From Pseudomonas tructae (GTDB lineage Bacteria > Pseudomonadota > Gammaproteobacteria > Pseudomonadales > Pseudomonadaceae), in contig NZ_CP035952.1 of NCBI RefSeq assembly GCF_004214895.1, positions 2,924,501 to 2,988,500 of the forward strand: DNA of 64,000 nucleotides. The letters are read 5' to 3'. The notes under the pieces were generated by a model. That model had not been told where the DNA came from. It worked only from the letters and a program-made list of their open reading frames with translations, and made no database searches. Numbering within the stretch: position 1 is the first letter of the stretch; every line of letters starts with the position of its first letter. Both the position numbers and the translations under genes were made by a program. Positions 21,882-57,037 of this stretch are shown here, one piece after another.

Positions 21882-23228
21882 TCATGGCACGAGCACCACT
21901 TCTTCGCTGTCGCTACCGCCGTTGGCGCTGGTCACCGTGACCTTGGCGGGCGGAATCGGCGACAGGCCGGTGGTGAGGGTCTTGACCGCGCCATTGCCGC
22001 TCAGGGTGCCGATCGTGGCGCCGTTGCCGGTGCTGGCGCTGAGCACCGGTGGGCTGGTTTCGTCGCTGGTGCTGGCCACCAGGGTCAGTTGCCCGGAAGC
22101 CAGGCTGAACTCGGCGCGCTGGATCACCACCAGGTCGGTCAGTGGCAGGGTGACGGTGGTGGGCGTGCTGCTGGGGATCGCCAGGTGGTTGTCGGCAGTC
22201 ACCTGCAGGTTCATCGGCAGCGCCGGGTTGAGCACCGACTGGGCGTACCAGGCGCCGGTACTGTTGGCCTCGCTTAACTCCAGGACGGGCGTCTGGCTGC
22301 TCAGGGTGGCGCTGGCCGGTGGCGGTGGAGCTTGCACGAACACATCCTGCTGGGCGCGCAGGTCGCCGTTCTCGCTGTGGCGCGAGTAGGTGCTGCGCTG
22401 GGCGATCACCGGCGTTGGCCGCGCCACTTGCGACAACTTGCCCGAGACTGCAAACAGCTCGGTGCGCAGGTCCAGGCCGTTGGGCCCCTCGATGCGCACG
22501 AAGTTGGTGTTGAACGGGCTGCCGGTCACTGCCTCTTCAAGGTTCGGGTCGCCGATGAAGCGTTCGCTGGCGCCGGTGGCCGGATTGGTTTCGTTGTACG
22601 GGCCGCCCACACCGCGCAGGAACGGGCCGACATCGCCCTTGAGCGCGCCGGTGTAGGTTTTCGGCGAGCCGATGCCGATGTCGCGGGTCATGTTGATCGC
22701 CCGCCGCCCGGCTGCCGGCACATCGAAGACTTCGACGCCGTAGGGGTGGGTGACGATGTAGGTGCCGGCAGTGGGCACATCGACGCGGATACGCACCCGG
22801 GCGAAGCTGACTTGATCACCATCCACTACATCTTCGGCGGCGAAGGCGGCCTCGATGGCGGTACCGTAGCTCAGGTCGATGCCACGGGCGGCGTCGACGA
22901 TGGCGGCATCGGCGGTAAACCAGAAGGTTTCATCGGGGTAGTTGCCCGGGAAACTGATCGGCTGGGTGTCGTCGAACACCCCGGGAGCCGGGTTGAGCAC
23001 GCACATGTAGGAGGGCGCGCCGGGGGCGCCGGGCACCCGTGAACTGACCGCCTTGGTCAGGCACAAGTCCAGCACCCGGCCATGGGTGTCCTGGTACCAG
23101 GCGGCAAAGCCACCGGTTGCCGGCAGGTACGGGCCGGGGTCTACTTCGAACAGTGCGGCCTGGGCCGGTGCCTGGATAATGCTCGCCAGGATCAGCACAG
23201 CCAGTGGGTGGGGCGTTGGACGGTGCAT
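21882..23228 (-). CDS. Curli-associated secreted protein, first gene of the operon
   Basis: A 448-residue secreted protein, paralogous to the N-terminal part of the next gene (shared VDPGPY, WYQD, SSRVP, HPYGVE, GRRAINMTRDIGIG, FLRGVGGPYNETNPATGAS). The signal peptide ends near APAQA. It ends NGGSDSEEVVLVP, the same GGSDSE junction that precedes the cadherin-like repeats in the paralogue, so it looks like the same protein without the repeats. The start at 23228 is chosen over 23246 because it has a better ribosome-binding site and signal peptide. A sigma-54-type promoter lies 55 bases upstream. The function is unknown. Conservation of the pair with curlin genes suggests a role in fibre assembly or cell-surface attachment. 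Confidence 0.75.
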   Translation of the reverse strand: MHRPTPHPLAVLILASIIQAPAQAALFEVDPGPYLPATGGFAAWYQDTHGRVLDLCLTKAVSSRVPGAPGAPSYMCVLNPAPGVFDDTQPISFPGNYPDETFWFTADAAIVDAARGIDLSYGTAIEAAFAAEDVVDGDQVSFARVRIRVDVPTAGTYIVTHPYGVEVFDVPAAGRRAINMTRDIGIGSPKTYTGALKGDVGPFLRGVGGPYNETNPATGASERFIGDPNLEEAVTGSPFNTNFVRIEGPNGLDLRTELFAVSGKLSQVARPTPVIAQRSTYSRHSENGDLRAQQDVFVQAPPPPASATLSSQTPVLELSEANSTGAWYAQSVLNPALPMNLQVTADNHLAIPSSTPTTVTLPLTDLVVIQRAEFSLASGQLTLVASTSDETSPPVLSASTGNGATIGTLSGNGAVKTLTTGLSPIPPAKVTVTSANGGSDSEEVVLVP

Positions 23229-23282
23229 GAGTCTTCCCTCTTGCAATCGGGCCCATGGACTTGGGTCGTCTGCACAGGCATC

Positions 23283-23298
23283 GGCAACATCCGTACCA
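23283..23298 (-). promoter_or_regulatory. Putative sigma-54 promoter of the curli subunit operon
   Basis: Read on the minus strand this is TGGTACGGATGTTGCC, with the invariant GG and GC exactly 10 bases apart and 11 of 12 specified positions or near matches to TGGCACG-N4-TTGCW. Transcription would start about 40 bases before the first gene of the curli operon. A CCCC-N6-GGGG box lies ~95 bases upstream. Confidence 0.7.
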
Positions 23299-23389
23299 AC
23301 ACACTGTCAAAGCGCCGCAGACCGCGGGGGGCAAGGGCTTGCCGGGGCAATACCCGGTCGTCGTCGCAGGCCAGGGGAAGGGGCGTGAG

Positions 23390-23404
23390 CCCCAGGGTTG
23401 GGGG
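23390..23404. promoter_or_regulatory. Putative enhancer box between the curli operon and mnxS1
   Basis: CCCCAGGGTTGGGGG fits the CCCC-N6-GGGG pattern seen upstream of other sigma-54-like promoters in this window. It lies ~95 bases upstream of the curli promoter and 74 bases before mnxS1, so it could serve either gene. Confidence 0.55.
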
Positions 23405-23477: not shown

Positions 23478-24932
23478 ATGAGCAGCCAGCCGCACCTCGA
23501 TTCGTCGCCTGCAAGCATCGCAAGCCCAGCACCTGCCAGCGGGCGCAAGCCGTTCGACTTGCTGCGCTGGTATGCCTTCGTGAGCCTTGCGATCATCCTC
23601 TCGGTGGCGGTGGGCCTGGGGTTGATCTCCAGCCGCTTCGTCATCAATGAAAGCGTCGAGCGCGATGCCTTGCTCACCGCCCAGTTCATCCAGGCGATTG
23701 CCCAGGCTGAAGTGCGCCACGTCTCGATTCCCAACGTGCGTACCATGGGCGAGCTGCTCGACCCACGGCTGGACCAGGCCTTCCCCGACGTCGACCCGCA
23801 GGCGCGACGCAGCGCCCGGGGCGAGTTTCTCGACCATGTCGCGCACCTGCCTGACGTGCTGCTGGCCAATATCTACGCCCCGGACCGCCTGGTGATCTGG
23901 TCGAGCAACCCGGCGTTGGTGGGCAAGATGATCGAAGCCGACGATGACCTGGACCATGCTTTCGATCAGAAAATGCGGGTGTCGGCCAGCTATCACAATG
24001 TCGACCAGGCGCGTGCCGAGCAGAAGTTCATCACCCCGCCCGAACAGCTGTTCATCGAGAACTACATCCCGTTGTTCGACGCCGACGGCAACAACGTCAC
24101 GGCCATGGTCGAGATCTACAAGGAGCCTCACGACCTGATCCTGCGTATCGAGCGCGGCTTGCTGCTGATCTGGCTGGCCACCGCCATCGGTGCGGGGCTG
24201 GTGTACATCAGCCTGTACGGCATCATGCGTCGCGCCGCCCGGCAATTGGCGGTGCAGCAAAAGCGCCTGGTCAACAACGAGACCTACGTGGCCCTGGGCG
24301 AGATGTCCTCGGCGGTGGCTCACAGCCTGCGCAATCCCCTGGCGAGCATTCGCTCAAGCGCCGAACTTGCCCAGGAAATCGAAGAGGGCCCGGCGCAGAA
24401 GAACATCGGCGACATCATCAGCCAGGTCGATCGCATGTCGCACTGGGTGCGCGAGTTGCTGCAGTCGTTGCGGCCGCTCGACGACACGGCGGTGCCCGTG
24501 GACCTGCAGCGCGCGTTGCAGGACAGCCTGCAGGGCTTTGCCCCACAGTTGTTGCGCAGCGACGTGCGCCTGCAGTTGGGTGAGATACCTTCGGTTCAGG
24601 TGACCTGCCAGCCGGTGTTGCTCGGGCAGATCTTCACCAGCCTGATCGCCAATGCCCTGGAGGCCATGCCCGAGGGCGGCGAGTTGCGCATCGAGCGTGT
24701 GCGGCAGAGCCGCCAGAGCTTGACGTTGCGCCTGTGCGACAGCGGCAAGGGCATGACCCAGGAGCAGCAAAGCATGGCCTTCAAGCCGTTTTTCACCACC
24801 AAGCAGGGCGGGCTCGGGGTCGGGCTGATGCTGGTGCGGCGGATCATGGAGCGTTTTGGCGGCGCGGTGAAACTGAGCAGTGAAGAGGGCCAGGGGACCT
24901 GTGTGCTGCTGACATTCAAACTGGCCGAATAG
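23478..24932 (+). CDS. mnxS1: Sensor histidine kinase MnxS1
   Basis: A 484-residue membrane kinase with two transmembrane helices (about 27-50, WYAFVSLAIILSVAVGLGL, and 225-247) around a ~170-residue periplasmic sensor. The cytoplasmic part has a HisKA domain with the histidine in MSSAVAHSLRNPLASIRSS and an HATPase domain with SLIANALEAMPEGGE, DSGKGM and FFTTKQGGLGVGL. There is no HAMP or PAS domain that I can see. It is closely similar to the MnxS2-like kinase at 29.1 kb along its whole length. MnxS1, MnxS2 and MnxR are the two-component proteins shown by genetics to be needed for Mn(II) oxidation in P. putida GB-1; the assignment here rests on this pairing and on the adjacent mcoA and mnxR. 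AGGAG lies 6 bases before the ATG at 23478. Confidence 0.8.
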   Translation: MSSQPHLDSSPASIASPAPASGRKPFDLLRWYAFVSLAIILSVAVGLGLISSRFVINESVERDALLTAQFIQAIAQAEVRHVSIPNVRTMGELLDPRLDQAFPDVDPQARRSARGEFLDHVAHLPDVLLANIYAPDRLVIWSSNPALVGKMIEADDDLDHAFDQKMRVSASYHNVDQARAEQKFITPPEQLFIENYIPLFDADGNNVTAMVEIYKEPHDLILRIERGLLLIWLATAIGAGLVYISLYGIMRRAARQLAVQQKRLVNNETYVALGEMSSAVAHSLRNPLASIRSSAELAQEIEEGPAQKNIGDIISQVDRMSHWVRELLQSLRPLDDTAVPVDLQRALQDSLQGFAPQLLRSDVRLQLGEIPSVQVTCQPVLLGQIFTSLIANALEAMPEGGELRIERVRQSRQSLTLRLCDSGKGMTQEQQSMAFKPFFTTKQGGLGVGLMLVRRIMERFGGAVKLSSEEGQGTCVLLTFKLAE

Positions 24933-25123: not shown

Positions 25124-25126
25124 TTT

Positions 25127-25140
25127 CCCCGGTTCTGGGT
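25127..25140. promoter_or_regulatory. Weak enhancer-like box upstream of mcoA
   Basis: CCCCGGTTCTGGGT is one base short of the CCCC-N6-GGGG pattern. It lies 80 bases before the sigma-54-like promoter of mcoA, the same spacing as at mnxG and the curli operon. On its own it would not be convincing. Confidence 0.4.
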
Positions 25141-25219
25141 GAGCCTTTTTATAAAATTAAACATTAAGTATTAGAGTTAACTATCTGATAAATAACATCT
25201 AAATATCTTGATACAGATA

Positions 25220-25235
25220 TGGCCAAGTAATTGCA
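25220..25235 (+). promoter_or_regulatory. Putative sigma-54 promoter of mcoA
   Basis: TGGCCAAGTAATTGCA has TGGC and TTGCA elements with GG and GC 10 bases apart. It lies 36 bases before the mcoA start codon and behind an AT-rich stretch. MnxR, an NtrC-family activator encoded nearby, is the obvious candidate to act here. Confidence 0.7.
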
Positions 25236-25270: not shown

Positions 25271-28051
<2,781 letters not shown>

Positions 28052-28066: not shown

Positions 28067-29002
28067 ATGGGCGTTATCGCGCGGTGCCTGGCGTTGCTGT
28101 GGTTGTGCCTGAGCCTGCCGGGGCTGGCCGAGGAGGCCACACCCTGGGGGGCGCAGTACTTCCCCAACACCGAATTGATCGACCAGGACGGTGAACACCT
28201 GCGGTTTTTCGACGACCTGATCAAGGACAAGGTGGTGGTGATCAACTTCATCTTCACCGGTTGTGGCGACTCCTGCCCGCTGGAAACCGCGCGCCTGCGC
28301 CAAGTCCAGCAACTGCTGGGCGAGCGGGTCGGGCGTGAGGTGTTCTTCTACTCCATCAGCATCGACCCGCTCAGTGACAGCCCCGAGGTACTCAAGGCCT
28401 ACGCCGGCAAGTTCAAGGTTGGGCCCGGCTGGCGCTTTTTGACTGGTGACAAGCAGCAGATCGATGCCCTGCGGCGCACCCTGGGCCTGTTTATCGAAGG
28501 TGTCGACAACGGCCGCAGCCGCGACCATAACCTCAGCCTGATCGTCGGCAACCAGGCCACCGGGCGCTGGATGAAGGCCTCGCCCTTTGAAAACCCGTGG
28601 ATTCTTGCCGACCAGTTGGCCAACAGCCTGCAGAACTGGAAACAGCCCAGCAGCGAGCAAAGCTACGCCGACGCCCCGCAGATCCGCCCGCCGAGCAGCG
28701 GCGAGGAGCTGTTTCGCACCCGTTGTGCGGCCTGTCACAGCCTTGGCCCGGAGGATGGTCAAAGCTCCGGCCTGCGCGCGGTCGGCCCCGACCTGTTGGG
28801 GGTGACCCGGCGCCGTGAGCACCGCTGGCTGAGCCGCTGGATTCGCGAGCCCGACCGCATGCTCGCCGAACACGACCCCCAGGCCATGGCGCTCTACCAG
28901 CAGTTCAACGCCGTGGCGATGCCCAACCTGCGCCTGGGCGAGGACGATGCCCAGGCCCTGCTGACGTTTCTTGAAGAGGAGGCCGTGCGCCAGCTGCAAT
29001 AG
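28067..29002 (+). CDS. SCO1/SenC-cytochrome c fusion protein
   Basis: A 311-residue periplasmic protein. After a signal peptide (to LPGLA, about 21) comes a SCO1/SenC thioredoxin-like domain with the copper-binding CxxxC in FTGCGDSCPLE, near residue 66, and the distal histidine in RSRDHNLSLIV. The C-terminal ~100 residues are a class I cytochrome c with CAACHS haem attachment and a likely axial Met in VAMPNLRL. SCO proteins deliver copper to cuproenzymes; the fused haem domain could reduce the copper or thiols. The gene lies 15 bases after mcoA and is probably cotranscribed with it, so McoA is the likely client. Two further SCO proteins occur in the mnxG operon but without haem domains. Confidence 0.87.
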   Translation: MGVIARCLALLWLCLSLPGLAEEATPWGAQYFPNTELIDQDGEHLRFFDDLIKDKVVVINFIFTGCGDSCPLETARLRQVQQLLGERVGREVFFYSISIDPLSDSPEVLKAYAGKFKVGPGWRFLTGDKQQIDALRRTLGLFIEGVDNGRSRDHNLSLIVGNQATGRWMKASPFENPWILADQLANSLQNWKQPSSEQSYADAPQIRPPSSGEELFRTRCAACHSLGPEDGQSSGLRAVGPDLLGVTRRREHRWLSRWIREPDRMLAEHDPQAMALYQQFNAVAMPNLRLGEDDAQALLTFLEEEAVRQLQ

Positions 29003-30575
29003 AGGCAAAATACTATCACTGCACCCCAGGCCATTAGTTTTGATATACGACGCCTGCCGGCGCGCTGGGCTATAAGTTCTAAGAAAAAAGCATGCACGGC
29101 AGGATCAGACCCGATGCAGATGCTCAACAAGAAACTGGCCGATGAGGGCCCCGACAGTCAGGCTACCCGCCAACCCTTGCGCCAGTTCAACCTGTTGCGC
29201 TGGTTCTCGCTGGTCAGCCTGTTGATCATCGCTTCGGTGGCAGGCGGGTTGGGCTATGTGTCAACGCGCTTCGTGGTCACCGACAGCGTCGAGCGCGATG
29301 CCATGCTCACCGCCCAGTTCATCCAGGCCATGGCCCAGGCCGAAGTGCGCCACTCGCGCATCCCGCCGGGTACCACCATGGGCGAGTTGCTCGACCCGCG
29401 CCTGGACCAGCATCACCCTAGCGTCACCCCGACCCTGGCCGAATCCACCCGGGTGGAATTTCTCGACCATGTCGAGCATCTGCCCGACACCTTGCTGGCC
29501 AATGTCTACGCGCTGGACCGGACCATCGTCTGGTCGACCAACCCGGAACTGATCGGCAAGAAAATCGAAGGCGATGATGATCTTGACCAGTCCTTCGAGT
29601 CGAAGGTGGCGGTGTCGGCCAGCTATCACAAGGCCGACGAAGACCGCGAAGAACAGAAGTTCCAGCGCGAGCCGCAGTACCTGTTCATCGAAAACTACAT
29701 CCCCATGTTCGACAGCCAGGGCAAGAAGGTGCTGTCGATGGTCGAGGTGTACAAGGAACCCCAGGACCTGGTGCGGCGCATCCAGCGCGGTTATGTGCTG
29801 ATCTGGGCTTCGACTCTGCTGGGAGGGGCGTTGATCTACTTTGGCCTGTTCTGGATCGTGCGCCGCGCGGCGAGCATGCTGCAGACCCAGCAAACTCAGC
29901 TGGTGGCCAGCGAAACCTTTGTCGCCCTGGGCGAGATGTCCTCGACAGTGGCCCACAGCCTGCGCAATCCGCTGGCCAATATCCGCTCCAGCGCCGAGCT
30001 GGCCCAGGACATTGCCAGCGCGCCTGCGCAAAAGAACATCAGCGACATCATCAGCCAGGTTGACCGCATGTCGCGTTGGGTACGCGACTTGCTGGTATCG
30101 CTGCGGCCAATGAACGACGATGCCGAAGCGGTCGAGCTGGTGGCGGCGATCGATGACACCCGTCATGCCTATGCCCAGCAACTGGAGCGGCACAAGGTCC
30201 TGGTGCAGGTCGACACGCCAGAGGTGGCCTGGGTGATCAGCCAACCAGTGTTGCTTACCCAGATTCTCAACAGCCTGTTCGCCAACGCCCTGGAAGCCAT
30301 GCCCAGCGGTGGGCGGCTGGAGCTGGCGGTGCACAGCCTTGAAGACGGCCGGCAACTGCAACTGACCTTGAGCGACACCGGCAAGGGCATGACCCAGCAG
30401 CAGGAACGGATGGTCTTCAAGCCGTTTTTCACCACCAAACAGGGCGGCCTCGGCGTCGGCCTGGTGCTGGTCAAGCGGATCATGGAACGTTTTGGCGGCT
30501 CGGTGAGCCTGGCCAGCCGCGAAGAGGAAGGAACCCGTGTTTGCCTGATCTTCAACGGTGCAGTGGGAGGGGAAC

Positions 30576-32000
<1,425 letters not shown>

Positions 32001-34604: not shown

Positions 34605-34619
34605 GCGCACGCCCTCCGG

Positions 34620-35875: not shown

Positions 35876-35927
35876 AATCAAGATTCACTAGGCTTTGTAA
35901 GTGTTTAAAAAATAACGATAAAAAATC

Positions 35928-45120: not shown

Positions 45121-45125
45121 AGACC

Positions 45126-47373: not shown

Positions 47374-47447
47374 AAGGGGTGAGCACCCGTTTGCGTCTAT
47401 GCTTACAGAATCAACGACATAGCACAGTGATTTGCGCCGTATCACGC

Positions 47448-47463
47448 TGGCACGAAGCATGCG
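47448..47463 (+). promoter_or_regulatory. Putative sigma-54 promoter of the receiver-T2SS-csgEFG operon
   Basis: TGGCACGAAGCATGCG matches the -24 element TGGCACG exactly, with GG and GC 10 bases apart; the -12 element is ATGC rather than TTGC. It lies 72 bases before the GTG start of the receiver gene. Confidence 0.65.
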
Positions 47464-47534: not shown

Positions 47535-48068
47535 GTGAACACAGTATTGGTAGTCGATGACGAACAGACCCTTGCCGGCAATATCCAGGATTACCTGGTT
47601 CTGCAAGGCCTCGACGTCCACGTTGCCCACGACGGAAACAGTGCAATCGGCGCCGCCGAGCGCACCCGGCCCGAAGTGGTCGTGCTGGATTATCGCTTGC
47701 CCGACATGGAGGGGTTTCAGGTACTGGAGACTGTGCGCCAACAAGGTACGGACTGTCATTTCGTGTTGATCACTGCCCACCCGACCGCCGAGGTTCGTGA
47801 GCGGGCCAGCCAACTGGGTGTCAGCCATATCCTGTTCAAGCCTTTTCCGCTGGCGGAACTGGCCCGCGCAGTCCTCGACCTGATGGGCATCACGCGAAAC
47901 AACCCGCGCGCAGCCAACACGGACACAGGGTTCGTCGAACGACGCCAGAGCAGGAGTGAGAGTTTCCCCCTGCAGTTGTTCGACGGTAGCTGGGTCCTGG
48001 CCGATCGCCGACGTAATGGCATACGGCCGCCGGGGCCCGACGACGACCAGCTGCTCACCGGGGAATAA
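47535..48068 (+). CDS. Orphan response regulator, receiver domain with short tail
   Basis: A 177-residue protein. The receiver domain (TVLVVDDEQTLAGNIQDYLV) has the acid pair DD near residues 9-10 and the phospho-acceptor in VVLDYRLPDMEG near 54, with the conserved lysine in LFKPFPLAELA. The last ~55 residues are basic and polar with no recognised output domain or helix-turn-helix. Start is GTG at 47535 (TTG at 47532 is also possible), with GGGAG upstream. No kinase gene is adjacent; MnxS1 and MnxS2 are candidate partners. It heads the probable 10-kb operon of type II secretion-like and csgEFG genes, so it may modulate the machine post-translationally rather than bind DNA. Confidence 0.8.
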   Translation: MNTVLVVDDEQTLAGNIQDYLVLQGLDVHVAHDGNSAIGAAERTRPEVVVLDYRLPDMEGFQVLETVRQQGTDCHFVLITAHPTAEVRERASQLGVSHILFKPFPLAELARAVLDLMGITRNNPRAANTDTGFVERRQSRSESFPLQLFDGSWVLADRRRNGIRPPGPDDDQLLTGE

Positions 48069-50601: not shown

Positions 50602-51144
50602 ATGCGCCGCCTGATGCTGGATTTTCAGCCCACCCGCACCGGGCTGCCCGCCTGGGCGCTGCTGGCTGCCGGCCTGAGCCTGCTGCTCGGCGCCGGGCTG
50701 TTGCAGCATGGCCTGGCTCAACAGCAGGCCGCGCTTGAGCAACAAGTCGAACAGCTCGACCGGCAACTGGGCAAACGCCCGCAGGCCGAGCCAAGCCTAA
50801 ATGCCGCACAAAGCCGTGAGCAGGCTGAAAAGCTGGCGCAGATGCGCAGCGTCTCGCAGCAACTGCAACGGCCCTGGGAGCGCCTGTTCGGCATGCTCGA
50901 GGGACTGGAGCAGGACGACGTCGCCTTGCTTACCCTGACCCCCGACGCACGCAAGGGCCAACTGCGCATCAGCGCCGAGGCGCGCGATCTGGAAGCCATG
51001 CTGGCTTTCCACAAGCGCCTGGAGGCCAGTGACGAACTGCGCGATGTGTCGTTGCTCAACCACGAAATCATCGCCAAACAGGCCGAGCATCCGGTGCAGT
51101 TCAACCTGTCGGCCACCTGGGAGAACGGCAATGCGCGTCCCTAG
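50602..51144 (+). CDS. Inner-membrane secretion protein, PilN-like
   Basis: A 180-residue single-pass inner-membrane protein. A short cytoplasmic N-terminus (MRRLMLDFQPTR) is followed by one helix (TGLPAWALLAAGLSLLLGAG). A coiled coil rich in Gln and Glu (AALEQQVEQLDRQLGKRP) leads to a small periplasmic ferredoxin-like domain (DDVALLTLTPDARKGQLRIS). This layout matches PilN/MshJ and the C-terminal part of GspL. It starts directly after the preceding stop and overlaps the next gene by 14 bases. It would form an inner-membrane scaffold with the PilO-like protein. Confidence 0.75.
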   Translation: MRRLMLDFQPTRTGLPAWALLAAGLSLLLGAGLLQHGLAQQQAALEQQVEQLDRQLGKRPQAEPSLNAAQSREQAEKLAQMRSVSQQLQRPWERLFGMLEGLEQDDVALLTLTPDARKGQLRISAEARDLEAMLAFHKRLEASDELRDVSLLNHEIIAKQAEHPVQFNLSATWENGNARP

Positions 51145-51679
51145 CCTGATTATTCATGAGCGCGCCCATAAGCTTGGCGTGGTCGGCCTGGCCGGTGCCG
51201 GGCTGTTGGCCCTGGCCCTGCTGTATGGCGCCGCGGTGCTGCCGGGGCAATGGCAACACCTGCAAAGCCTTGAGCAACAGCGTGATCAGGCCCGTGCGCA
51301 GGTCGTGCAATTGCAGCAGGGCACGTTGAAGCTGCCATCGGTGCCCCGGCACGAGCTGGAAGACTTTCACAAGCAGTTGCCGGCCCAGCCCCAGGCCACC
51401 GTGGCCATCGACCGCATCTACGCCCTGGCCAAGGCCGAGCAGATCACCCTGGCCCGCGGTGAATACGCCCTGGGTGTCGACCCCAAGACGCAACTGGCGC
51501 GCTACCAGATCCTCCTGCCGGTGCGCGGCAGCTACCCGCAGATCCGCCGCTACGTGCATGCCTTGCTCGGCCAGTTGCCGGCACTGGTGCTCGAAGACAT
51601 CGACCTGCAACGCAAGAAGATCGGCGACCGCGAGCTGACCGGGCGCATCCGTATGACCCTTTATCTGTCGAGGTCATGA
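51131..51679 (+). CDS. Inner-membrane secretion protein, PilO-like
   Basis: A 182-residue inner-membrane protein with one N-terminal helix (LGVVGLAGAGLLALALLYGA), a coiled coil and a periplasmic ferredoxin-like fold (RYQILLPVRGSYPQIRRYVHALLGQLPALVLEDIDLQRKK) typical of PilO and GspM. It overlaps the PilN-like gene by 14 bases and the next gene by 4 bases, so the three are translationally coupled. PilO usually pairs with PilN to control pseudopilus assembly. Naming as GspM is an alternative. Confidence 0.8.
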   Translation: MRVPSLIIHERAHKLGVVGLAGAGLLALALLYGAAVLPGQWQHLQSLEQQRDQARAQVVQLQQGTLKLPSVPRHELEDFHKQLPAQPQATVAIDRIYALAKAEQITLARGEYALGVDPKTQLARYQILLPVRGSYPQIRRYVHALLGQLPALVLEDIDLQRKKIGDRELTGRIRMTLYLSRS

Positions 51680-52179
51680 TGAACACTCAACGCAGCCTGG
51701 CCTGGCTGGGATTTCTCGGCACCGCCGCGGTGCTGGCCTGGGGGCCGGGGTACTTTTTCGACGACGCGGCTGAAGACGGCGAGCCAGCTGTGACCGTCGC
51801 CAGCGCGGTGGCGGCAAGCGTGCCGGTGCCGGGTCAGTCGGACAGTAAAGCAGCGCCGCTCACGCCGCGCGACCTGTTCCCGAGCAAGAGCTGGAAGCCT
51901 GCGGTGCAAGTGACCACGGTCACCGAGCAACCGGTGGTGATTGCCCCGGTGGCCCTGGCGCCCACCGCGCCGGCGCTGCCGTTCCAGTTCGTCGGCCGCC
52001 TGGATGATCGCGCCGATCAGCAGGTGTTCCTGCAAAGCGGCGAGAAGCTCTACGTCGTGCGCCGTGGCGACGTGATCGATGACACCTACCGGATCGAGCA
52101 GATCTCCGCCACGGAGCTGAGCCTGGTCTACCTGCCGTTGCACCTGTCCCAGACCTTGTCTGTAGGGAGCGCACCATGA
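51676..52179 (+). CDS. PilP/GspC-like inner-membrane to secretin linker
   Basis: A 167-residue protein with an N-terminal helix (SLAWLGFLGTAAVLAWGPG), a long Pro/Val-rich periplasmic linker and a C-terminal beta-rich domain (LPFQFVGRLDDRADQQVFLQSGEKLYVVRRGDVIDDTYRIEQIS). The last part is the homology region of PilP and GspC that binds the secretin N0 domain. It has no lipobox, unlike PilP; it therefore looks more like GspC or MshK. It overlaps the previous and the next gene by 4 bases each. It should link the inner-membrane platform to the outer-membrane secretin. Confidence 0.75.
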   Translation: MMNTQRSLAWLGFLGTAAVLAWGPGYFFDDAAEDGEPAVTVASAVAASVPVPGQSDSKAAPLTPRDLFPSKSWKPAVQVTTVTEQPVVIAPVALAPTAPALPFQFVGRLDDRADQQVFLQSGEKLYVVRRGDVIDDTYRIEQISATELSLVYLPLHLSQTLSVGSAP

Positions 52180-53999
52180 TTTCCACCAGGCTGTGCAACA
52201 AAGCGCCGTACCTGATGCTGGCCCTGTGTGTCGCCCTGGCCGGATGCGGCACCTCCGGGGTACGCAAGGACGCCCAGGCGCTGATCGGCGAAGGCCAGTA
52301 CGAGGCCGGCATTGCCCAGCTCGAAGAGGCGCTCAAGGAGCACCCGCGCGACACCGAACTGAACATCGCCCTGATCCAGGGCCGGCGCCAGGCGGTGGAA
52401 GCGCTGCTGACCCAGGCCGACAGCGACCGCAGCCGCCATGACTTCGGCGGTGCGCGCAGCGCTTATGGCCGGGTGTTGACCCTGGAGCCGAACAATCGCC
52501 GGGCCCTGGACGCGGTGCGCCAGATCGAGCAGATGCGCAACCTCGGCGAGCGCATCGCCCTGGGCCAGGCCGCACTGCGCGCAGGCGATCTGTTCGGCGC
52601 CGAGCGACACATGCGCGAAGTGCTGCTGCTCGACCCGCAGAACGAAGGCGGCCTGGCGTTGCGCAAGGACATCGAACGGGTGCAAAGCCGCACCGCGCAG
52701 CCCAACCCGCAGTTGCGCACCAAGCTCGAACGCCCGGTGACCCTGGAGTTTCGCGACGCCAACCTCAAAACCATCTTCGAGGTGCTGTCGCAGGTGGCGG
52801 GGCTCAACTTCATCTTCGACAAGGACCTGCGTCCAGACATGAAAGCGACCATTTTCGTCCGCGATGTGCGCATCGAGGATGCCGTGGCCCTGCTGCTGGA
52901 ACAGAACCAGCTGCACCAGAAGGTGGTGAACGACAACACCCTGCTGATCTACCCGGATTCGCCGCAGAAGACCAAGGATTACCAGGAACTGGTGATGCGC
53001 ACCTTCTACCTGACCAGCATCGACGCCAACACCGCGCTGAACATGGTCAAGACCATGCTCAAGACCCGCGATGTGTTTGTTGATGAGCGCCTGAACACCC
53101 TGACCATGCGCGACACCTCCGACGCCGTGCGCATGGCCGAGAAGCTGTTGCAGTCCCAGGACCAGTCCAACCCGGAAGTGGTGCTGGAGGTGGAGGTGAT
53201 GGAGGTGGCCCGTTCGCGGATTCTCGAGCTCGGTCTGCAGTGGCCCAACACCTTCGGCATTCTCAATGCCGACGGCAATCCGGTGGGCACTCTCGACCAA
53301 CTGCGCGGCATCAACTCCTCGCGCATCAGTATCGCGCCGGCGCCACAAGCCAAGATCAACGCCCAGGACAACGACATCAATACCCTGGCAAGCCCGGTGA
53401 TCCGCGTCAGCAACCGCGAGCAGGCGCGCATCCACATCGGTCAGCGGGTGCCGATCATCAGCGCCACCTCGGTGCCCTCGACCCAGGGCCCGGTGATCAC
53501 CGAAAGCGTTACCTACCTGGATGTCGGCCTCAAGCTCGAAGTGACCCCGGTGGTGCACCTGAACAACGAAGTGGCGATCAAAGTGGCGTTGGAGGTCAGC
53601 AACGCCAAGCCGCTGGAGCCGACCCGCCAGGGCACCATTCCGGTCCAGGTCGACACCCGCAATGCCCAGACCAGCCTGCGCCTGCACGATGGCGAAACCC
53701 AGGTGCTGGCGGGCCTGGTGCGCAACGACCAGGGCGGCAGCGGCAACAAGATTCCCGGCCTGGGCGATATTCCCGGCCTGGGCCGGCTGTTCGGCAGCAA
53801 CCGCAGCGACAACAGCCAGTCGGAGCTGGTGCTGTCGATCACCCCGCGGATCATCCGCAACCTGCCGTACCAGAGCCCGTCGGACATGGAATTTGCCACC
53901 GGCACCGAAACCAGCATGCAGATCCGCAACCTCAACCGCAGTGTCGAGGTGCCGGACGACCAGGCGCTGGTGGCTGTGCCTGACGCAGTGAGGCCCTGA
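52176..53999 (+). CDS. Secretin lipoprotein with N-terminal TPR region
   Basis: A 607-residue outer-membrane secretin. The signal peptide ends in lipobox LAGC (cysteine near residue 25), so it may be anchored as a lipoprotein. Residues 30-175 are helical TPR-like repeats (ALIGEGQYEAGIAQLEEALKEHPRD, YGRVLTLEPNNRRAL). After this come the secretin N0/N1 domains (VTLEFRDANLKTIFEVLSQVAGLNFIF) and the C-terminal secretin core (LASPVIRVSNREQARIHIGQRVPI, DVGLKLEVTPVV, LHDGETQVLAGLVRND, IPGLGDIPGLGRLFG). The layout resembles MshL/PilQ/TadD-fused secretins more than classic GspD. It forms the outer-membrane pore for the system. The TPR part is a replacement for a separate pilotin-type helper, which is inference. 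Confidence 0.88.
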   Translation: MISTRLCNKAPYLMLALCVALAGCGTSGVRKDAQALIGEGQYEAGIAQLEEALKEHPRDTELNIALIQGRRQAVEALLTQADSDRSRHDFGGARSAYGRVLTLEPNNRRALDAVRQIEQMRNLGERIALGQAALRAGDLFGAERHMREVLLLDPQNEGGLALRKDIERVQSRTAQPNPQLRTKLERPVTLEFRDANLKTIFEVLSQVAGLNFIFDKDLRPDMKATIFVRDVRIEDAVALLLEQNQLHQKVVNDNTLLIYPDSPQKTKDYQELVMRTFYLTSIDANTALNMVKTMLKTRDVFVDERLNTLTMRDTSDAVRMAEKLLQSQDQSNPEVVLEVEVMEVARSRILELGLQWPNTFGILNADGNPVGTLDQLRGINSSRISIAPAPQAKINAQDNDINTLASPVIRVSNREQARIHIGQRVPIISATSVPSTQGPVITESVTYLDVGLKLEVTPVVHLNNEVAIKVALEVSNAKPLEPTRQGTIPVQVDTRNAQTSLRLHDGETQVLAGLVRNDQGGSGNKIPGLGDIPGLGRLFGSNRSDNSQSELVLSITPRIIRNLPYQSPSDMEFATGTETSMQIRNLNRSVEVPDDQALVAVPDAVRP

Positions 54000-54002
54000 A
54001 TC

Positions 54003-54479
54003 ATGAAACGATCGATGGCAGGTTTCAGCCTGATCGAAGTGATGCTGACCCTGGCGCTGCTCGGGTTGCTGGCCTCGATTGCCGCGCCGCTGACCGAAAC
54101 CCTGGTGCGGCGCAACAAGGAGCAGGAACTGCGCACCGCGCTGTACCAGTTGCGCGATGCCATCGACGCCTACAAGCGCGCGTTCGATGCCGGCTACATC
54201 GAAAAATCCCTCGACGCCAGCGGCTACCCGCCGAACCTGCAGGTGCTGGTCGATGGCGTGCGCGATGTGCGCAGTGCCAAGGGTGCCAAGTTCTACTTTC
54301 TGCGACGCATTCCACAGGATCCGCTGGTGGCGACGCGCAAGGACGATGAGCCAGGCGGTTGGGGCCTGCGCGCCTATGACAGTCCGGCGCAGAACCCGCG
54401 CGATGGCGAAGACGTTTTCGATGTGTATTCCCAGGCCCGTGGCAAAGGCCTCAACGGCATCGCCTACGGGCAGTGGTGA
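54003..54479 (+). CDS. Type II pseudopilin
   Basis: A 158-residue pseudopilin with prepilin cleavage site MAG|FSLIEVMLTLALLGL at residues 7-8 and Glu at +5. The mature part has an N-terminal hydrophobic helix and a globular region with YPPNLQVLVDGVRDVRSAKG and FLRRIPQDPLV, resembling the GspG/PulG family rather than GspH. The C-terminal part ends with GKGLNGIAYGQW, so it lacks the standard calcium loop of gspG. It starts 3 bases after the secretin stop. It may be a minor pseudopilin of the same machine as GspG at 34.6-35.0 kb. Confidence 0.88.
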   Translation: MKRSMAGFSLIEVMLTLALLGLLASIAAPLTETLVRRNKEQELRTALYQLRDAIDAYKRAFDAGYIEKSLDASGYPPNLQVLVDGVRDVRSAKGAKFYFLRRIPQDPLVATRKDDEPGGWGLRAYDSPAQNPRDGEDVFDVYSQARGKGLNGIAYGQW

Positions 54480-54484
54480 ACAAT

Positions 54485-54859
54485 ATGAAAGCTAGCCGGG
54501 GCTTCACCCTGATCGAACTGCTGGTGGTGATGGCGATCATCGCCACGCTGATGACCATCGCCATGCCGCGCTACTTCAACAGCCTGGAAACCTCGCGCGA
54601 GGCCACTCTGCGCCAGAGCCTGGCGGTGATGCGCGAGGCCCTGGACCACTACTACGGCGATACCGGCCGCTACCCCGAATCGCTCGAACAACTGGTGGAG
54701 CAGCGTTACCTGCGCGGCGCGCCGCTGGACCCGATCACCGAACGCCGCGACCTGTGGCAGGTGGTAGCGCCGCCTGAAGGTGTCGCAGGTTCAGTGGCCG
54801 ACATCAAGAGCGGCTCAACCGGGAGGGCCCGTGATGGCAGCCTTTATGCCGAGTGGTAA
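54485..54859 (+). CDS. Type II pseudopilin, small
   Basis: A 124-residue pseudopilin. The start at 54485 gives MKASRG|FTLIELLVVMAII; the prepilin peptidase site has Gly at -1, Phe at +1 and Glu at +5. The mature chain has a short globular part with ALDHYYGDTGRYPESLEQLVEQRYL and PLDPITERRDLWQVV, again of the PulG type, and ends DGSLYAEW. It lies 5 bases after the previous pseudopilin gene and overlaps the next by 26 bases. A GTG at 54473 is an alternative start. Confidence 0.88.
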   Translation: MKASRGFTLIELLVVMAIIATLMTIAMPRYFNSLETSREATLRQSLAVMREALDHYYGDTGRYPESLEQLVEQRYLRGAPLDPITERRDLWQVVAPPEGVAGSVADIKSGSTGRARDGSLYAEW

Positions 54860-55364
54860 GGCCGGGCAGGCAGGCTTCACCTACCTGGGCGTGTTGCTGC
54901 TGATCGCCGTCACCGGCATGGTCCTGGCGGCCACCGGCACGCTGTGGTCGAGCGTCGCCCAGCGCGAACGCGAACGCGAGCTGCTGTGGGTCGGCGCGCA
55001 GTACGCCCAGGCCTTGCGCAGCTACTTTCGCAGCTCGCCGGGACTCGCTCAGTACCCGCAGAGCCTGGAAGAACTGCTCGAAGACAACCGTTACCCCGAC
55101 CCCAGGCGCCACCTGCGCAGGCTGTACCCGGACCCGATGACCCACAGCGACGACTGGGGCCTGCTGCGTTCGATCGATGGGCGTATCACTGGCGTCTACA
55201 GCCGCTCCCAGGCGATGCCGCGCAAGCGCAGCGGTTTTGCCGCGCAGTGGGCCGAGTTCGAGGGCCTGGAGCACTACAGCGACTGGCAGTTCGTTGCCGA
55301 AAAAGCTTTTGCCGAAACCGCAGCGGGTGCGCGCAAGGGCCTGGCCCAGGGAGCCGGGCAATGA
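54834..55364 (+). CDS. Atypical pseudopilin lacking Glu5
   Basis: A 176-residue type II secretion pseudopilin. The N-terminus, MAAFMPSGKAGQAG|FTYLGVLLLIAVT, has the Gly-Phe cleavage site but Gly at +5 instead of Glu. Glu5 is needed for the N-terminal contacts of major pseudopilins, and its absence is characteristic of tip proteins such as GspK. The mature part is PulG-like (SPGLAQYPQSLEELLEDNRYPDPRRHLRRLYPDP) and has an Arg-rich middle. The start at 54834 has GGGAGG 7 bases before it, and lies inside the previous gene. Its last 4 bases overlap csgE, so secretion and curli genes are transcribed together. Confidence 0.8.
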   Translation: MAAFMPSGKAGQAGFTYLGVLLLIAVTGMVLAATGTLWSSVAQRERERELLWVGAQYAQALRSYFRSSPGLAQYPQSLEELLEDNRYPDPRRHLRRLYPDPMTHSDDWGLLRSIDGRITGVYSRSQAMPRKRSGFAAQWAEFEGLEHYSDWQFVAEKAFAETAAGARKGLAQGAGQ

Positions 55365-55753
55365 ACCGCCTCAGTGCCTGCGCCCTGGCCCTGGTGCTGC
55401 TGGCCGGCACCGCCCGGGGCGGCGCCGAGGACGAGATGATGGGCTTTATCGTCGACAACACCATCTCGCACATCGGCCATGACTTCTATTACAGCTTCGC
55501 CGAGCGACTGCGTGCCACCAGCCGCCTGGATTTCAACCTGGTGGTACGCGAACGGCCCGACCCGCGCTGGGGCAGCCTGGTGACGGTCGAGTACGAGCAA
55601 CGGGTGATGTACCGGCGTTTTCTGCCACCCAACACCACCGAACTCAAGGACGCCGCCTACGAGGCTGCGGACCTGGTCAAGGCGCAGATCATCCAGCGCA
55701 AGCTGCAGATGCTGCTGCAGGACACCACTGATCTGGAGAGGGACGAGCTATGA
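55361..55753 (+). CDS. csgE: Curli export accessory protein CsgE
   Basis: A 130-residue periplasmic protein with a signal peptide (to GTARG) and the CsgE core: GFIVDNTISHIGHDFYYSF, then LVVRERPDPRWGSLVTVEYEQ and MYRRFLPPNTTELKDAAY. CsgE caps the CsgG pore and directs curlin subunits to it. It begins inside the stop of the preceding pseudopilin gene and overlaps csgF by 4 bases. CsgC, CsgD and CsgH genes were not found in the window. The clients, csgA and csgB, are 36 kb away. Confidence 0.93.
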   Translation: MNRLSACALALVLLAGTARGGAEDEMMGFIVDNTISHIGHDFYYSFAERLRATSRLDFNLVVRERPDPRWGSLVTVEYEQRVMYRRFLPPNTTELKDAAYEAADLVKAQIIQRKLQMLLQDTTDLERDEL

Positions 55754-56166
55754 ACAATAACAAAACCCGCCGCCTGGCCTTCGCGCTGCTGGCCGCCCTG
55801 GGCAGCCAGGCCGGCGCCACGGAGCTGGTCTACACCCCGGTCAACCCGGCGTTCGGCGGCAACCCGTTGAACGGCACCTGGTTGCTCAACAACGCCCAGG
55901 CGCAGAACGATCACGACGACCCGGCGATCAAGGACCGCGCTTCGGCCTTCGCCAGCACCTCGGCGCTGGAGCGCTTCACCAGCCAGCTGGAATCGCGCCT
56001 GCTGTCGCAACTGCTGACCAACATCAACAACGGCAATACCGGCAGCCTGCAGACCGACGCCTTCATCATCAATGTCATCGACGACTCGGGGGCCTTGAGT
56101 ATTCAGGTCACCGACCGGGTCACCGGTGAGATTTCGGAAATCCAGGTCAACGGCCTGGCCCCTTGA
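55750..56166 (+). CDS. csgF: Curli nucleation and assembly protein CsgF
   Basis: A 138-residue secreted protein. The signal peptide ends near QAGA. The mature N-terminus reads TELVYTPVNPAFGGNPLNGTWLLNNAQAQ, which is the conserved CsgF stretch that inserts into the CsgG pore. The C-terminal part contains IQVTDRVTGEISEIQVNGLAP. CsgF anchors the curli nucleator at the cell surface. It overlaps csgE by 4 bases and is followed by csgG 28 bases later. Normal length for the family. Confidence 0.93.
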   Translation: MNNNKTRRLAFALLAALGSQAGATELVYTPVNPAFGGNPLNGTWLLNNAQAQNDHDDPAIKDRASAFASTSALERFTSQLESRLLSQLLTNINNGNTGSLQTDAFIINVIDDSGALSIQVTDRVTGEISEIQVNGLAP

Positions 56167-56194
56167 CGGGGCGGGACAACGGGGAGAAACAGCC

Positions 56195-57037
56195 ATGAAA
56201 CGATTTCTGAGCACACTGCTGATCCTGGCCGCCTTGCAAGGCTGCAGCCTGCGCGAGCCGATGTCGGCCGAACAGGACAGCGAAAGCCCGACCCTGACGC
56301 CACGCGCCTCGACCTACTACGACCTGCTCAACATGCCGCGGCCCAAGGGCCGGCTGATGGCGGTGGTGTACGGCTTTCGCGACCAGACCGGGCAATACAA
56401 ACCGACCCCGGCCAGCTCGTTTTCCACCAGCGTCACCCAGGGTGCGGCAAGCATGCTGATGGATGCCCTGCAGGCCAGCGGCTGGTTCGTGGTACTCGAA
56501 CGCGAGGGGCTGCAGAACCTGCTGACCGAACGCAAGATCATCCGCGCCTCGCAGAAAAAGCCCGACACCCCGGTGAACATCCTTGGTGAACTGCCACCGC
56601 TGCAGGCGGCCAACCTGATGCTGGAAGGCGGCATCATTGCCTACGACACCAACGTGCGCAGTGGCGGCGAGGGCGCGCGTTACCTGGGCATCGACCTGTC
56701 GCGCGAGTACCGGGTCGACCAGGTCTCGGTCAACCTGCGGGCGGTGGACGTGCGCAGCGGCCAGGTCCTGGCCAACGTCATGACCAGCAAGACCATCTAC
56801 TCGGTCGGGCGCAGCGCCGGGGTGTTCAAGTTCATCGAATTCAAGAAACTGCTGGAAGCCGAGGTCGGCTACACCACCAACGAGCCGGCGCAGCTGTGCG
56901 TACTGTCGGCGATCGAGGCAGCGGTGGGGCACCTGCTGGCCCAGGGCATCGAGCGGCGCTTGTGGCAGGTGGCGGGGGATGACAGTGGCGACAAGGCGAC
57001 CCTGGACAAATACCTGAGCCAGTACCAGACCCCGTGA
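56195..57037 (+). CDS. csgG: Curli outer-membrane secretion lipoprotein CsgG
   Basis: A 280-residue outer-membrane lipoprotein with lipobox LQGCS (cysteine near residue 16) after a short signal peptide. It has the typical CsgG segments MAVVYGFRDQTGQYKPTPASSFSTSVTQGA, WFVVLEREGLQNLLTERKIIR, EGGIIAYDTNVRSGGEGARYLGI and KTIYSVG. Nine subunits form the channel through which unfolded CsgA and CsgB leave the cell. The ATG at 56195 has GGGGAGA upstream; an earlier in-frame ATG lies inside csgF. It is the last gene of the secretion-curli operon; an inverted REP pair follows. Confidence 0.95.
   Translation: MKRFLSTLLILAALQGCSLREPMSAEQDSESPTLTPRASTYYDLLNMPRPKGRLMAVVYGFRDQTGQYKPTPASSFSTSVTQGAASMLMDALQASGWFVVLEREGLQNLLTERKIIRASQKKPDTPVNILGELPPLQAANLMLEGGIIAYDTNVRSGGEGARYLGIDLSREYRVDQVSVNLRAVDVRSGQVLANVMTSKTIYSVGRSAGVFKFIEFKKLLEAEVGYTTNEPAQLCVLSAIEAAVGHLLAQGIERRLWQVAGDDSGDKATLDKYLSQYQTP

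What the first reader, a model, noticed from the sequence alone, without database searches (positions are those of the whole stretch)
21882..57037. Manganese oxidases, curli and a type II secretion-like machine encoded together
Within 35 kb lie both Mn oxidase types (mcoA, mnxG), their two-component regulators (mnxS1, mnxS2, mnxR), three SCO domains, two haem fusion proteins, the full curli set (csgA, csgB, csgE, csgF, csgG) and a dedicated type II secretion-like set. As I recall, the corresponding Mn genes are dispersed in P. putida GB-1. The clustering suggests one functional unit: export, copper-loading, Mn oxidation and an amyloid matrix that could template oxide. The gene identities come from sequence; the coupling is inference.
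Basis: partly seen in the sequence, partly recalled or inferred. Interest (0 to 1): 0.9.

Follow-up and report, generated by a model that had tools for sequence, protein, structure and literature searches.

The report
Manganese oxidase, exporter and curli regulon
In about a third of the Pseudomonas species sampled, the genes for oxidising manganese, a dedicated protein exporter and curli amyloid fibres occur together and carry the same rare type of switch in front of them, in most cases even where the curli genes have moved elsewhere, which suggests the cell makes the oxidase and its fibre coat as one programme.

Summary
Its proposed test was run. Of 398 Pseudomonas genomes, 124 carry mnxG; 123 of these carry csgF and all 124 carry curlin repeats, against 11 of 274 without mnxG. 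The exporter's GspL-like protein is in 36 of 36 mnxG genomes tested.

The new result is regulatory. Three operons (mnxG; exporter-csgEFG; csgBA) share a sigma-54 promoter in 43 of 43, 33 of 33 and 26 of 26 upstream regions, against 5 of 366 other gene starts of the same loci. They also share an inverted repeat, CCCC-N6-GGGG (exact in 28 of 43, 33 of 33, 25 of 26). Together the two find 93 sites in 80 genomes, 90 at Mn or curli operons. They occur where the sigma-54 activator MnxR occurs, apart from one stray site. Most remote csgBA operons keep both. A long form of the oxidase McoA shares its C-terminal tail with a curli-operon protein.

Outside Pseudomonas, exporter and mnxG occur together without curli. 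Oxide templating by the fibres is untested.

The parts
17732..19111 (-). curlin gene 1 (459 aa, CsgA-like, long)
   Evidence: Pfam Curlin_rpt 91.9 bits, 4 stretches; NCBIfam CsgA 109 bits, below its cut-off 160
19128..19598 (-). curlin gene 2 (156 aa, CsgB- or CsgA-like)
   Evidence: Pfam Curlin_rpt 75.8 bits, 3 stretches
19615..21885 (-). AncF1: secreted protein with Big_9/cadherin-like C-terminal half, in the csgBA operon
   Evidence: order ancF2-ancF1-curlin2-curlin1 kept in most relocated copies (lost in G271, L166); its tail matches the long McoA
21882..23228 (-). AncF2: paralogue of the N-terminal half of AncF1; no Pfam family at E <= 1
   Evidence: where a source names the 120 listed relatives (of 1855) it is hypothetical/uncharacterized protein or Glycoprotein gp2
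23283..23299 (-). sigma-54 -24/-12 site of the csgBA operon (TTGGTACGGATGTTGCC)
   Evidence: (26 of 26 loci)
23390..23403 (-). upstream inverted repeat CCCC-N6-GGGG of the csgBA operon
   Evidence: (25 of 26 loci exact)
23478..24932 (+). histidine kinase (MnxS1 by position)
25127..25140 (+). imperfect CCCC-N6-GGGG repeat (1 mismatch) upstream of mcoA
25219..25235 (+). weak sigma-54-like site of mcoA (score 0.80, below the 0.86 threshold)
25271..28051 (+). mcoA-type multicopper oxidase, short form (926 aa)
28067..29002 (+). SCO domain-cytochrome c fusion
29114..30607 (+). histidine kinase (MnxS2 by position)
30558..32000 (+). MnxR: receiver, sigma-54 activator and Fis-type DNA-binding domains
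   Evidence: orthologue in 37 of 80 genomes
33417..34610 (-). type II secretion F protein (xcmS, name recalled)
   Evidence: Pfam T2SSF 190.5 bits
34620..35045 (-). type II secretion G, major pseudopilin (xcmT1, name recalled)
   Evidence: Pfam T2SSG 142.9 bits
35220..35834 (+). lytic transglycosylase (SLT)
35927..35943 (+). sigma-54 -24/-12 site of mnxG (CTGGCATGGGCCTTGCT)
   Evidence: (43 of 43 regions)
35984..41842 (+). mnxG
   Evidence: NCBIfam NF041487 3908.7 bits
41859..43838 (+). beta-propeller protein of the mnxG operon
43835..44482 (+). SCO protein
44479..45120 (+). SCO protein
45117..46661 (+). cytochrome c-periplasmic binding protein fusion
46658..47305 (+). SurA_N domain protein
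47318..47331 (+). inverted repeat 1 of the exporter-csgEFG operon
47360..47373 (+). inverted repeat 2 of the exporter-csgEFG operon
   Evidence: (33 of 33 loci have at least one, 31 have two or more)
47409..47421 (+). IHF-like site (1 mismatch)
47447..47463 (+). sigma-54 -24/-12 site of the exporter-csgEFG operon (CTGGCACGAAGCATGCG)
   Evidence: (33 of 33 loci)
47535..48068 (+). receiver-only response regulator
48122..49822 (+). type II secretion E ATPase
   Evidence: Pfam T2SSE 414.5 bits
49803..50600 (+). GspL-like protein (assignment by position; no Pfam match; used as the exporter marker)
50602..51144 (+). PilN/GspL_C-like protein
51131..51679 (+). PilO-like protein
51676..52179 (+). small GspC/PilP-like protein (assignment by position only)
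   Evidence: no Pfam match
52176..53999 (+). secretin with TPR N-terminus
54003..54479 (+). pseudopilin 1
   Evidence: N_methyl
54473..54859 (+). pseudopilin 2
   Evidence: N_methyl
54834..55364 (+). pseudopilin-like protein (xcmX position, name recalled)
   Evidence: position; no Pfam match
55361..55753 (+). csgE
   Evidence: Pfam CsgE 125.6 bits
55750..56166 (+). csgF
   Evidence: Pfam CsgF 113 bits
56195..57037 (+). csgG
   Evidence: Pfam CsgG 269.3 bits

Best explanation
The locus is a manganese-oxidation and surface-matrix regulon. When MnxS1/MnxS2 sense their signal, MnxR binds CCCC-N6-GGGG repeats about 80 to 145 bp upstream of a sigma-54 promoter and switches on (1) mnxG with its copper-loading and haem partners, (2) a dedicated type II-like exporter together with the curli export genes csgEFG, and (3) the curli subunits with two secreted partner proteins, AncF1 and AncF2; mcoA is probably a fourth target. 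The exporter carries MnxG/McoA across the outer membrane, and curli plus AncF proteins form the coat in which the oxidases act and the oxide is held. Shown here by sequence: gene content, co-occurrence, gene order, shared promoter and repeat, distribution matching MnxR's, and a tail shared by the long McoA and AncF1. Inferred: that MnxR is the protein binding the repeat, the exporter's cargo, and the role of the fibres.
For: Co-occurrence mnxG/csgF 123-1-11-263 in 398 genomes, Fisher p 1.5e-88 without correction for kinship; curlin repeats in 124 of 124 mnxG genomes. csgF lies on the same contig within 30 kb in 110 of 123, median 14.5 kb downstream. GspL-like exporter marker in 36 of 36 mnxG genomes, in 1 of 11 csg-only genomes (G387, which has lost mnxG but keeps exporter, csg, mcoA and mnxR), and in 33 mnxG-free genomes only as two weak hits at 26-30% identity. 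Sigma-54 site within 250 bp: mnxG 43 of 43 regions (two genomes counted twice), exporter-csgEFG 33 of 33, csgBA 26 of 26; other gene starts of the same loci 5 of 366. Inverted repeat exact: exporter 33 of 33, csgBA 25 of 26, mnxG 28 of 43, against 2 of 237 over nine control gene sets. Both elements, no mismatch, in 80 whole genomes: 93 sites; 36 of 36 mnxG genomes and G387 have at least one, 0 of 10 other csg-only genomes and 1 of 33 mnxG-free genomes; 90 of 93 sites lie at mnxG, its next gene, exporter-csgEFG, csgBA or mcoA; the reversed pattern gives 7 sites. Of the 37 genomes the strict pattern hits the exporter operon in 35, csgBA in 29 and mnxG in 23. MnxR at E <= 1e-150 is in exactly those 37 genomes and in 0 of 43 others. 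Of eleven csgBA operons examined that lie 69 to 762 kb from mnxG on the same contig, ten keep both elements and the eleventh (G271) keeps the promoter without an exact repeat. Named genomes: sigma-54 at mnxG in 78 of 78 and exporter in 72 of 72 scorable loci of 80. Printed (passages): rpoN::Tn5 abolishes Mn oxidation; mnxG and mcoA promoters have predicted IHF and sigma-54 sites and need Mn.
Against: The window's own mnxG lacks an exact CCCC-N6-GGGG repeat, as do 15 of 43 mnxG upstream regions in all, and mcoA has only weak elements in most loci (3 of 9 reach the threshold). The strict pattern misses csgBA in 8 of 37 genomes; some of these were not fetched, so it is open whether they diverge. 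The second mnx-type csg cluster of G060 (L131) showed neither element in the 400 bp scanned. IHF-like sites are common at mnxG (26 of 43) and the exporter (19 of 33) but rare at csgBA (2 of 26). The divergent F/G pair has no sigma-54 site in 40 of 42 loci. Most control gene starts lie inside operons, hence in coding sequence, so they are a soft control. Genome G137 has lost csgF, csgG and most of both curlin genes yet keeps mnxG, exporter and mcoA, so curli is not needed for the rest to persist. With kinship taken into account, the co-occurrence rests on 7 independent contrasts (6.4 the same way, none opposite, p about 0.03). No experiment links MnxR to this repeat.
Confidence: 0.78

Rival explanations
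1. The csgEFG genes here serve the exporter: they are borrowed secretion parts for the oxidase rather than a curli system, and curli fibres are incidental.
For: csgEFG sit at the end of the exporter operon with 4-bp stop/start overlaps and stay with it while csgBA moves away.
Against: Curlin-repeat genes are present in 124 of 124 mnxG genomes, and csgBA has the same kind of promoter in 26 of 26 loci. Exporter relatives stand beside mnxG in three more distant bacteria that have neither CsgF nor curlin repeats by these models.
Confidence: 0.12
2. Co-inheritance of neighbours only: a large gene island was passed on as a block, and the shared promoters reflect a different sigma-54 activator or a general stationary-phase programme unrelated to manganese.
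For: Fisher counts ignore kinship; the tree leaves only 7 independent contrasts. Pseudomonas genomes have several sigma-54 activators (general knowledge).
Against: Ten of eleven csgBA operons 69 to 762 kb away keep both elements. The pair of elements is nearly absent from genomes without MnxR, 1 of 43.
Confidence: 0.1
3. Curli here is an ordinary biofilm matrix co-expressed with Mn oxidation in stationary phase, with no physical role in oxide formation.
For: G137 has lost the curli genes but kept mnxG, exporter and mcoA. Six MnxG-like genomes outside Pseudomonas lack CsgF and curlin repeats.
Against: The long McoA form carries a C-terminal tail 52% identical to that of the curli-operon protein AncF1; among the 120 listed relatives of the tail (of 382), 30 are multicopper oxidases, 81 are AncF1 proteins and 9 are other repeat proteins matching poorly or in part.
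Confidence: 0.35

Closest known systems
Xcm secretion pathway of Pseudomonas putida GB-1/KT2440 (de Vrind et al. 2003, Mol Microbiol 47:993; content recalled, paper not held; title in reference lists; Xcm cluster of GB-1 and KT2440 named in a passage of PMC4509608)
   Same: Same genes as far as I recall: xcmS-xcmT1 pair, xcmX with pseudopilins, csg homologues beside it, transport of the Mn-oxidising factor
   Different: Here shown to be one conserved unit with mnxG across the genus, with shared sigma-54 promoters, and linked to complete csgBA operons
mnxG, mcoA and mnxS1/S2/R loci of GB-1, MS-1 and DSV-1 (PMC11409713, passages)
   Same: Same operon contents; mcoA and its SCO gene lie between mnxS1 and mnxS2, as in MS-1/DSV-1; sigma-54 needed
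   Different: That paper has 0 occurrences of curli and of secretion in its main text
Curli systems (Dueholm et al. 2012, PMC3521004, passages)
   Same: CsgE, CsgF, CsgG and curlin-repeat subunits
   Different: No csgD identified beside the curli operons here; control by sigma-54 is predicted. That paper notes that no csgD lies near the csg operons of Pseudomonas except P. stutzeri and suspects other regulators
mnxG and mcoA promoter reporters in GB-1 (PMC11930936, passages)
   Same: Predicted IHF and sigma-54 sites; Mn-dependent activation
   Different: 0 occurrences of curli, csg or secretion in its main text

Membership tests
MnxG manganese oxidase | full-length match above the curated equivalog cut-off | tested here: met
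   3908.7 bits against cut-off 3100, profile 1-1894 of 1894
MnxG manganese oxidase | Mn(II) oxidation by the protein | not testable with these tools
   needs an assay
Type II secretion system | secretin, E ATPase, F protein, G pseudopilin | tested here: met
Type II secretion system | canonical C, L and M proteins | tested here: inconclusive
   only weak PilN/GspL_C and PilO matches; two proteins without Pfam match
Type II secretion system | prepilin peptidase in the cluster | tested here: not met
   none among the genes scanned between 19615 and 58134; a shared peptidase elsewhere in the genome was not sought
Curli (csg) system | curlin-repeat subunits plus CsgE, CsgF, CsgG | tested here: met
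Curli (csg) system | CsgD regulator next to the csg genes | tested here: inconclusive
   none within the curli operons; a receiver-GerE regulator at 9587-10453, 7 kb from the curlin genes, is closest to EvgA (179 bits, cut-off 251) and CsgD is not among its 25 best models; absence near csg is usual in Pseudomonas
Sigma-54/MnxR regulon | -24/-12 promoter in front of each operon | tested here: met
   43 of 43, 33 of 33, 26 of 26
Sigma-54/MnxR regulon | common activator site upstream | tested here: met
   exact repeat 33 of 33 and 25 of 26, but only 28 of 43 at mnxG
Sigma-54/MnxR regulon | MnxR binds the site and activates the promoter | not testable with these tools
   co-distribution only

The most novel reading that the evidence does not exclude
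Curli of mnxG-bearing Pseudomonas is a dedicated manganese-oxidation coat: its subunits, exporter and oxidases form one MnxR/sigma-54 regulon, and the long McoA is tethered to the coat by the C-terminal module that it shares with the curli-operon protein AncF1, so that oxide forms on an amyloid scaffold.
Probability: 0.45. Interest if true: 0.88.

Novelty: new variant of a known kind. Interest (0 to 1): 0.74.

Why it matters
What controls curli in Pseudomonas, where csgD is missing near the csg operons of all species but one examined, was left open in 2012 (PMC3521004, passage), and why bacteria oxidise manganese is also open. If right, curli in these species is not a general biofilm fibre but part of Mn biomineralisation. 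That makes both questions testable by one regulator deletion and one promoter assay. It also gives a promoter signature by which other members of the regulon can be found.

Tried and rejected
A first rpoB tree was wrong because some sequences were laid in on the wrong strand; it was discarded and rebuilt. A plain count of sigma-54-like sites over the window is not above expectation (13 against 9 to 17 in ten simulated sequences; strict pattern 3 matches against 6.7 expected); only position and conservation make the case. The 0.86 threshold was the lowest score among the first seven csgBA loci; of the 26 csgBA regions counted afterwards, 19 came from newly fetched loci. The scoring weights are mine, on a consensus recalled from memory. 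csgBA operons were counted through ancF2, so G271, which has lost ancF2 and nearly all of ancF1, was not among the 26; looked at afterwards it has the sigma-54 site (0.90) and no exact repeat. In genomes without mnxG that have csg, 10 of 11 carry a different curli operon, csgE and csgF with curlin genes around csgG (csgE missed in one, the curlin between F and G in another), csgE/F/G at 33 to 51% identity, without exporter genes. A structure model of AncF2 had mean pLDDT 57.5 and pTM 0.46; only the C-terminal part is confident, so no fold search was made. Rfam at gathering thresholds found nothing in the locus itself. Ten literature searches listed no paper that I could see to join curli with Mn oxidation in Pseudomonas beyond PMC3056050, which in the passages read treats the two separately; subscription papers are mostly missing from that library.

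Full report
WHAT IS IN THE WINDOW. The window is part of a 5.69 Mb Pseudomonas chromosome (G000:C1:2924501-2988500). The nearest named relative by MnxG is P. wadenswilerensis, 97% (records of the window's own genome may be left out there). The curlin genes lie at 17732-19598, outside the stated interval, behind two paralogous secreted proteins called here AncF2 (21882-23228) and AncF1 (19615-21885). From mnxG to csgG all genes listed point the same way. Neighbours overlap by 4 bases at prop-SCO-SCO-cytochrome-SurA and again at PilO-like/GspC-like/secretin and pseudopilin/csgE/csgF; the largest gap, 229 bp, is in front of the receiver-only regulator that heads the exporter-csgEFG operon.

CO-OCCURRENCE. 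Of 398 genomes of the genus, 125 have a MnxG match, 121 above the curated cut-off. One is a fragment of 73 profile positions (G331) that I dropped, leaving 124; three of these (G316, G390, G235) have MnxG in pieces. CsgF is in 134 and curlin repeats in 135 of the same 398. The table is 123 with both, 1 with mnxG only (G137), 11 with csgF only, 263 with neither. All 124 mnxG genomes have curlin repeats, and all 134 csgF genomes have them. In 110 of 123, csgF is on the same contig within 30 kb. In 109 of these the nearest pair is on the same strand; the remaining one, G087, also has a same-strand pair about 14.5 kb apart by the coordinates. In two genomes (G102, G200) mnxG lies 179 and 222 kb away on the other strand, as after an inversion, and in 11 the two genes are on different contigs. 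The G137 exception is a deletion: csgE breaks off at residue 69 and is followed by remnants of the curlin genes, with exporter, mnxG and mcoA intact.

EXPORTER. The GspL-like protein was sought in 80 genomes (36 with mnxG, 11 csg-only, 33 without either): 36 of 36, 1 of 11, and 2 of 33 as weak hits of 26-30% identity. The one csg-only genome with exporter genes, G387, lacks at this locus mnxG, the propeller, the second SCO, the cytochrome and the SurA gene, and keeps a SCO-like piece, exporter, csg, mcoA and MnxR. The other 10 csg-only genomes have a different curli operon without exporter genes. In 369 genomes of the class, MnxG matches occur in 9. One is the window's own; six others are substantial or multi-part but below the cut-off; two are marginal (E about 1e-5). 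Of those six, I fetched flanks of five. In three (G430, G698, G551) E, F, G and secretin relatives lie beside mnxG; in two (G720, G425) none was seen in the fetched flanks. None of the six has a CsgF or curlin-repeat match. So the exporter link reaches further than the curli link.

KINSHIP. An rpoB tree of 79 of the 80 genomes (G206 has a split gene and was left out) needs 7 changes for mnxG. In 7 independent pairs the mnx-type csg genes go the same way in 6.4 on average and never the opposite way (sign test p about 0.03). This supports joint gain and loss but is much weaker than the Fisher p of 1.5e-88, which ignores kinship. It also cannot separate function from being neighbours.

PROMOTERS. 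This is the test that depends least on neighbourhood. Scoring 250 bp plus 30 bp into each gene for a -24/-12 site (threshold 0.86; my weights, recalled consensus) gave mnxG 43 of 43 regions (G367 and G151 appear twice; one is a second mnxG of G087), the exporter-csgEFG operon 33 of 33 and the csgBA operon 26 of 26. Nineteen other gene starts of the same loci gave 5 of 366; most of these lie inside operons, so they are coding sequence and a soft control. Starts at operon ends gave xcmT1 2 of 42, mnxS2 0 of 13, mnxS1 0 of 6 and mcoA 3 of 9 (mnxS2 and mnxS1 are within the 366). Distances are nearly fixed, 56 to 88 bp before the start except in three mnxG regions (91 to 126). In 80 named loci the scorable figures are mnxG 78 of 78, exporter 72 of 72, gspE 1 of 66, surA 1 of 72, prop 5 of 75, xcmT1 4 of 47; the repeat is at 71 of 72 exporter and 56 of 78 mnxG starts. 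In the first set an exact CCCC-N6-GGGG repeat lies upstream in 33 of 33 (exporter; 31 with two or more copies, 40 to 45 bp apart), 25 of 26 (csgBA) and 28 of 43 (mnxG), against 2 of 237 in nine control sets, 4 of 13 at mnxS2, 0 of 42 at xcmT1 (though CCCC-N7-GGGG is in 24 of 42 there) and 0 of 9 at mcoA. The window's own mnxG has a different GGGG/CCCC block (35850-35875).

GENOME-WIDE TEST. The combined pattern without mismatch was sought in the 80 whole genomes: 93 sites. They occur in 36 of 36 mnxG genomes, in G387, in 0 of the other 10 csg-only genomes and in 1 of 33 genomes without either. A script placed 78 sites by coordinates: 33 exporter-csgEFG, 23 mnxG, 22 csgBA. Fifteen were left over. 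By fetched sequence, or in one case (G340) by distance from mnxG, I placed 12 of them: 2 before the gene after mnxG, 1 before mcoA in G385, 2 exporter, 7 csgBA (the mcoA site). Three are stray (G387:C5, G355, G087:C8). The reversed pattern gave 7 sites in all. By genome, the strict pattern hits the exporter operon in 35 of 37, csgBA in 29 of 37 and mnxG in 23 of 37. MnxR (E <= 1e-150) is in the same 37 genomes and in none of the other 43. Eleven csgBA operons that I examined lie 69 to 762 kb from mnxG on the same contig. Ten (G103, G217, G072, G200, G110, G323, G289, G372, G259, G102) keep both elements; G271 keeps the promoter without an exact repeat (coordinates; elements). IHF-like sites (one mismatch allowed) are frequent at mnxG (26 of 43), exporter (19 of 33) and mcoA (6 of 9), but not at csgBA (2 of 26); the nineteen control sets give 17 of 366 and xcmT1 2 of 42.

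SHARED TAIL. McoA matches were found in 32 of 36 mnxG genomes (one, G087, only as a fragment with a stop), in G387, and in none of the 33 others except a 176-residue fragment in G022 that I left out of that count. Of 48 matches, 43 are near full length; 24 of these lie in open frames of 1130 aa or more and 19 in shorter ones. The one long McoA read in full (L198, genome G385, 1132 aa) has a C-terminal tail 52% identical over 198 residues to the C-terminus of the window's AncF1, ending at the last residue of both. A search of 5.8 billion proteins with that tail listed 120 of 382 relatives. By my reading of the table, 30 have a multicopper oxidase domain, 81 are 671 to 750 aa long, and 9 are other Ig/cadherin-repeat proteins matching over part of the tail or at 29-34% identity. 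All 81 also match the N-terminal half of AncF1 (57% identity or more), as does one of the 9. The window's own McoA is the short form without the tail.

MECHANISM AND LIMITS. The best reading is one MnxR/sigma-54 regulon that builds oxidase, exporter and curli coat together. That MnxR is the binding protein rests on co-distribution, on its being the only sigma-54 activator identified among the genes scanned in the locus, and on printed results seen in passages: an rpoN insertion mutant of one of the strains MS-1 and DSV-1 does not oxidise Mn (PMC11409713); mnxG and mcoA are positively regulated by the two-component pathway (PMC9765421); their promoters carry predicted IHF and sigma-54 sites (PMC11930936). 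That the exporter carries the Mn-oxidising factor is from de Vrind et al. 2003, recalled, with only the title seen. The role of fibres in oxide formation is inference; G137 argues that curli is dispensable for keeping the rest.

NOVELTY. The neighbourhood of exporter and csg genes was, as I recall, known in GB-1. New, as far as the ten searches of the held library show, are the genus-wide coupling, the common sigma-54 promoter and repeat that include the curli subunit operon, and the tail shared by McoA and AncF1.

Noticed in passing
window 59556-59785 (-) and 59845-60043 (+): Two divergent cobalamin riboswitches beside the CbtA cobalt transporter gene; the second overlaps the end of a long minus-strand ORF (59936-63076) without Pfam match, which may be spurious.
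   Followed up: no
window 35172-35185: Perfect palindrome GGGGCATATGCCCC between the F/G pseudopilin pair and the transglycosylase; GGGG-N6-CCCC is upstream of xcmT1 in 34 of 42 loci, mostly without a sigma-54 site. Its binding protein is unknown.
   Followed up: partly
G087:C4, G151:C132, G340:C326, G311:C86, G167:C113, G271 and G264 (second places): Seven genomes carry a second, full-length MnxG of lower score (3785-3823 bits); in G087 it lies beside the other type of curli operon (L151).
   Followed up: no
L131 (G060:C4:806001-826000): A second csg cluster of the mnx-type (65-77% identity for csgE/F/G) without exporter genes in the fetched 20 kb, in a genome that also has the main locus; neither promoter element was seen in front of it. 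G042 too has a second csgF.
   Followed up: partly
L130 (G235) and G390:C1:4940795-4946519: MnxG matches in two adjoining pieces; either real breaks or sequencing errors.
   Followed up: no
window 6296-17496: Hybrid sensor kinase with SBP_bac_3 domains and an EvgA-like response regulator, then two TonB-dependent receptors and a FecR-like protein, beside the csgBA operon.
   Followed up: partly
L198:1315-4713 (-): Long McoA form whose C-terminal tail matches AncF1 of the curli operon.
   Followed up: yes
L196, L197 (G190, G259): A second repeat-plus-sigma-54 promoter between mnxG and the next gene, so mnxG and its followers can be split into two operons.
   Followed up: partly
L166 (G271:C1:3460371-3473371): csgBA operon that has lost ancF2 and nearly all of ancF1 but keeps a sigma-54 site.
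   Followed up: partly
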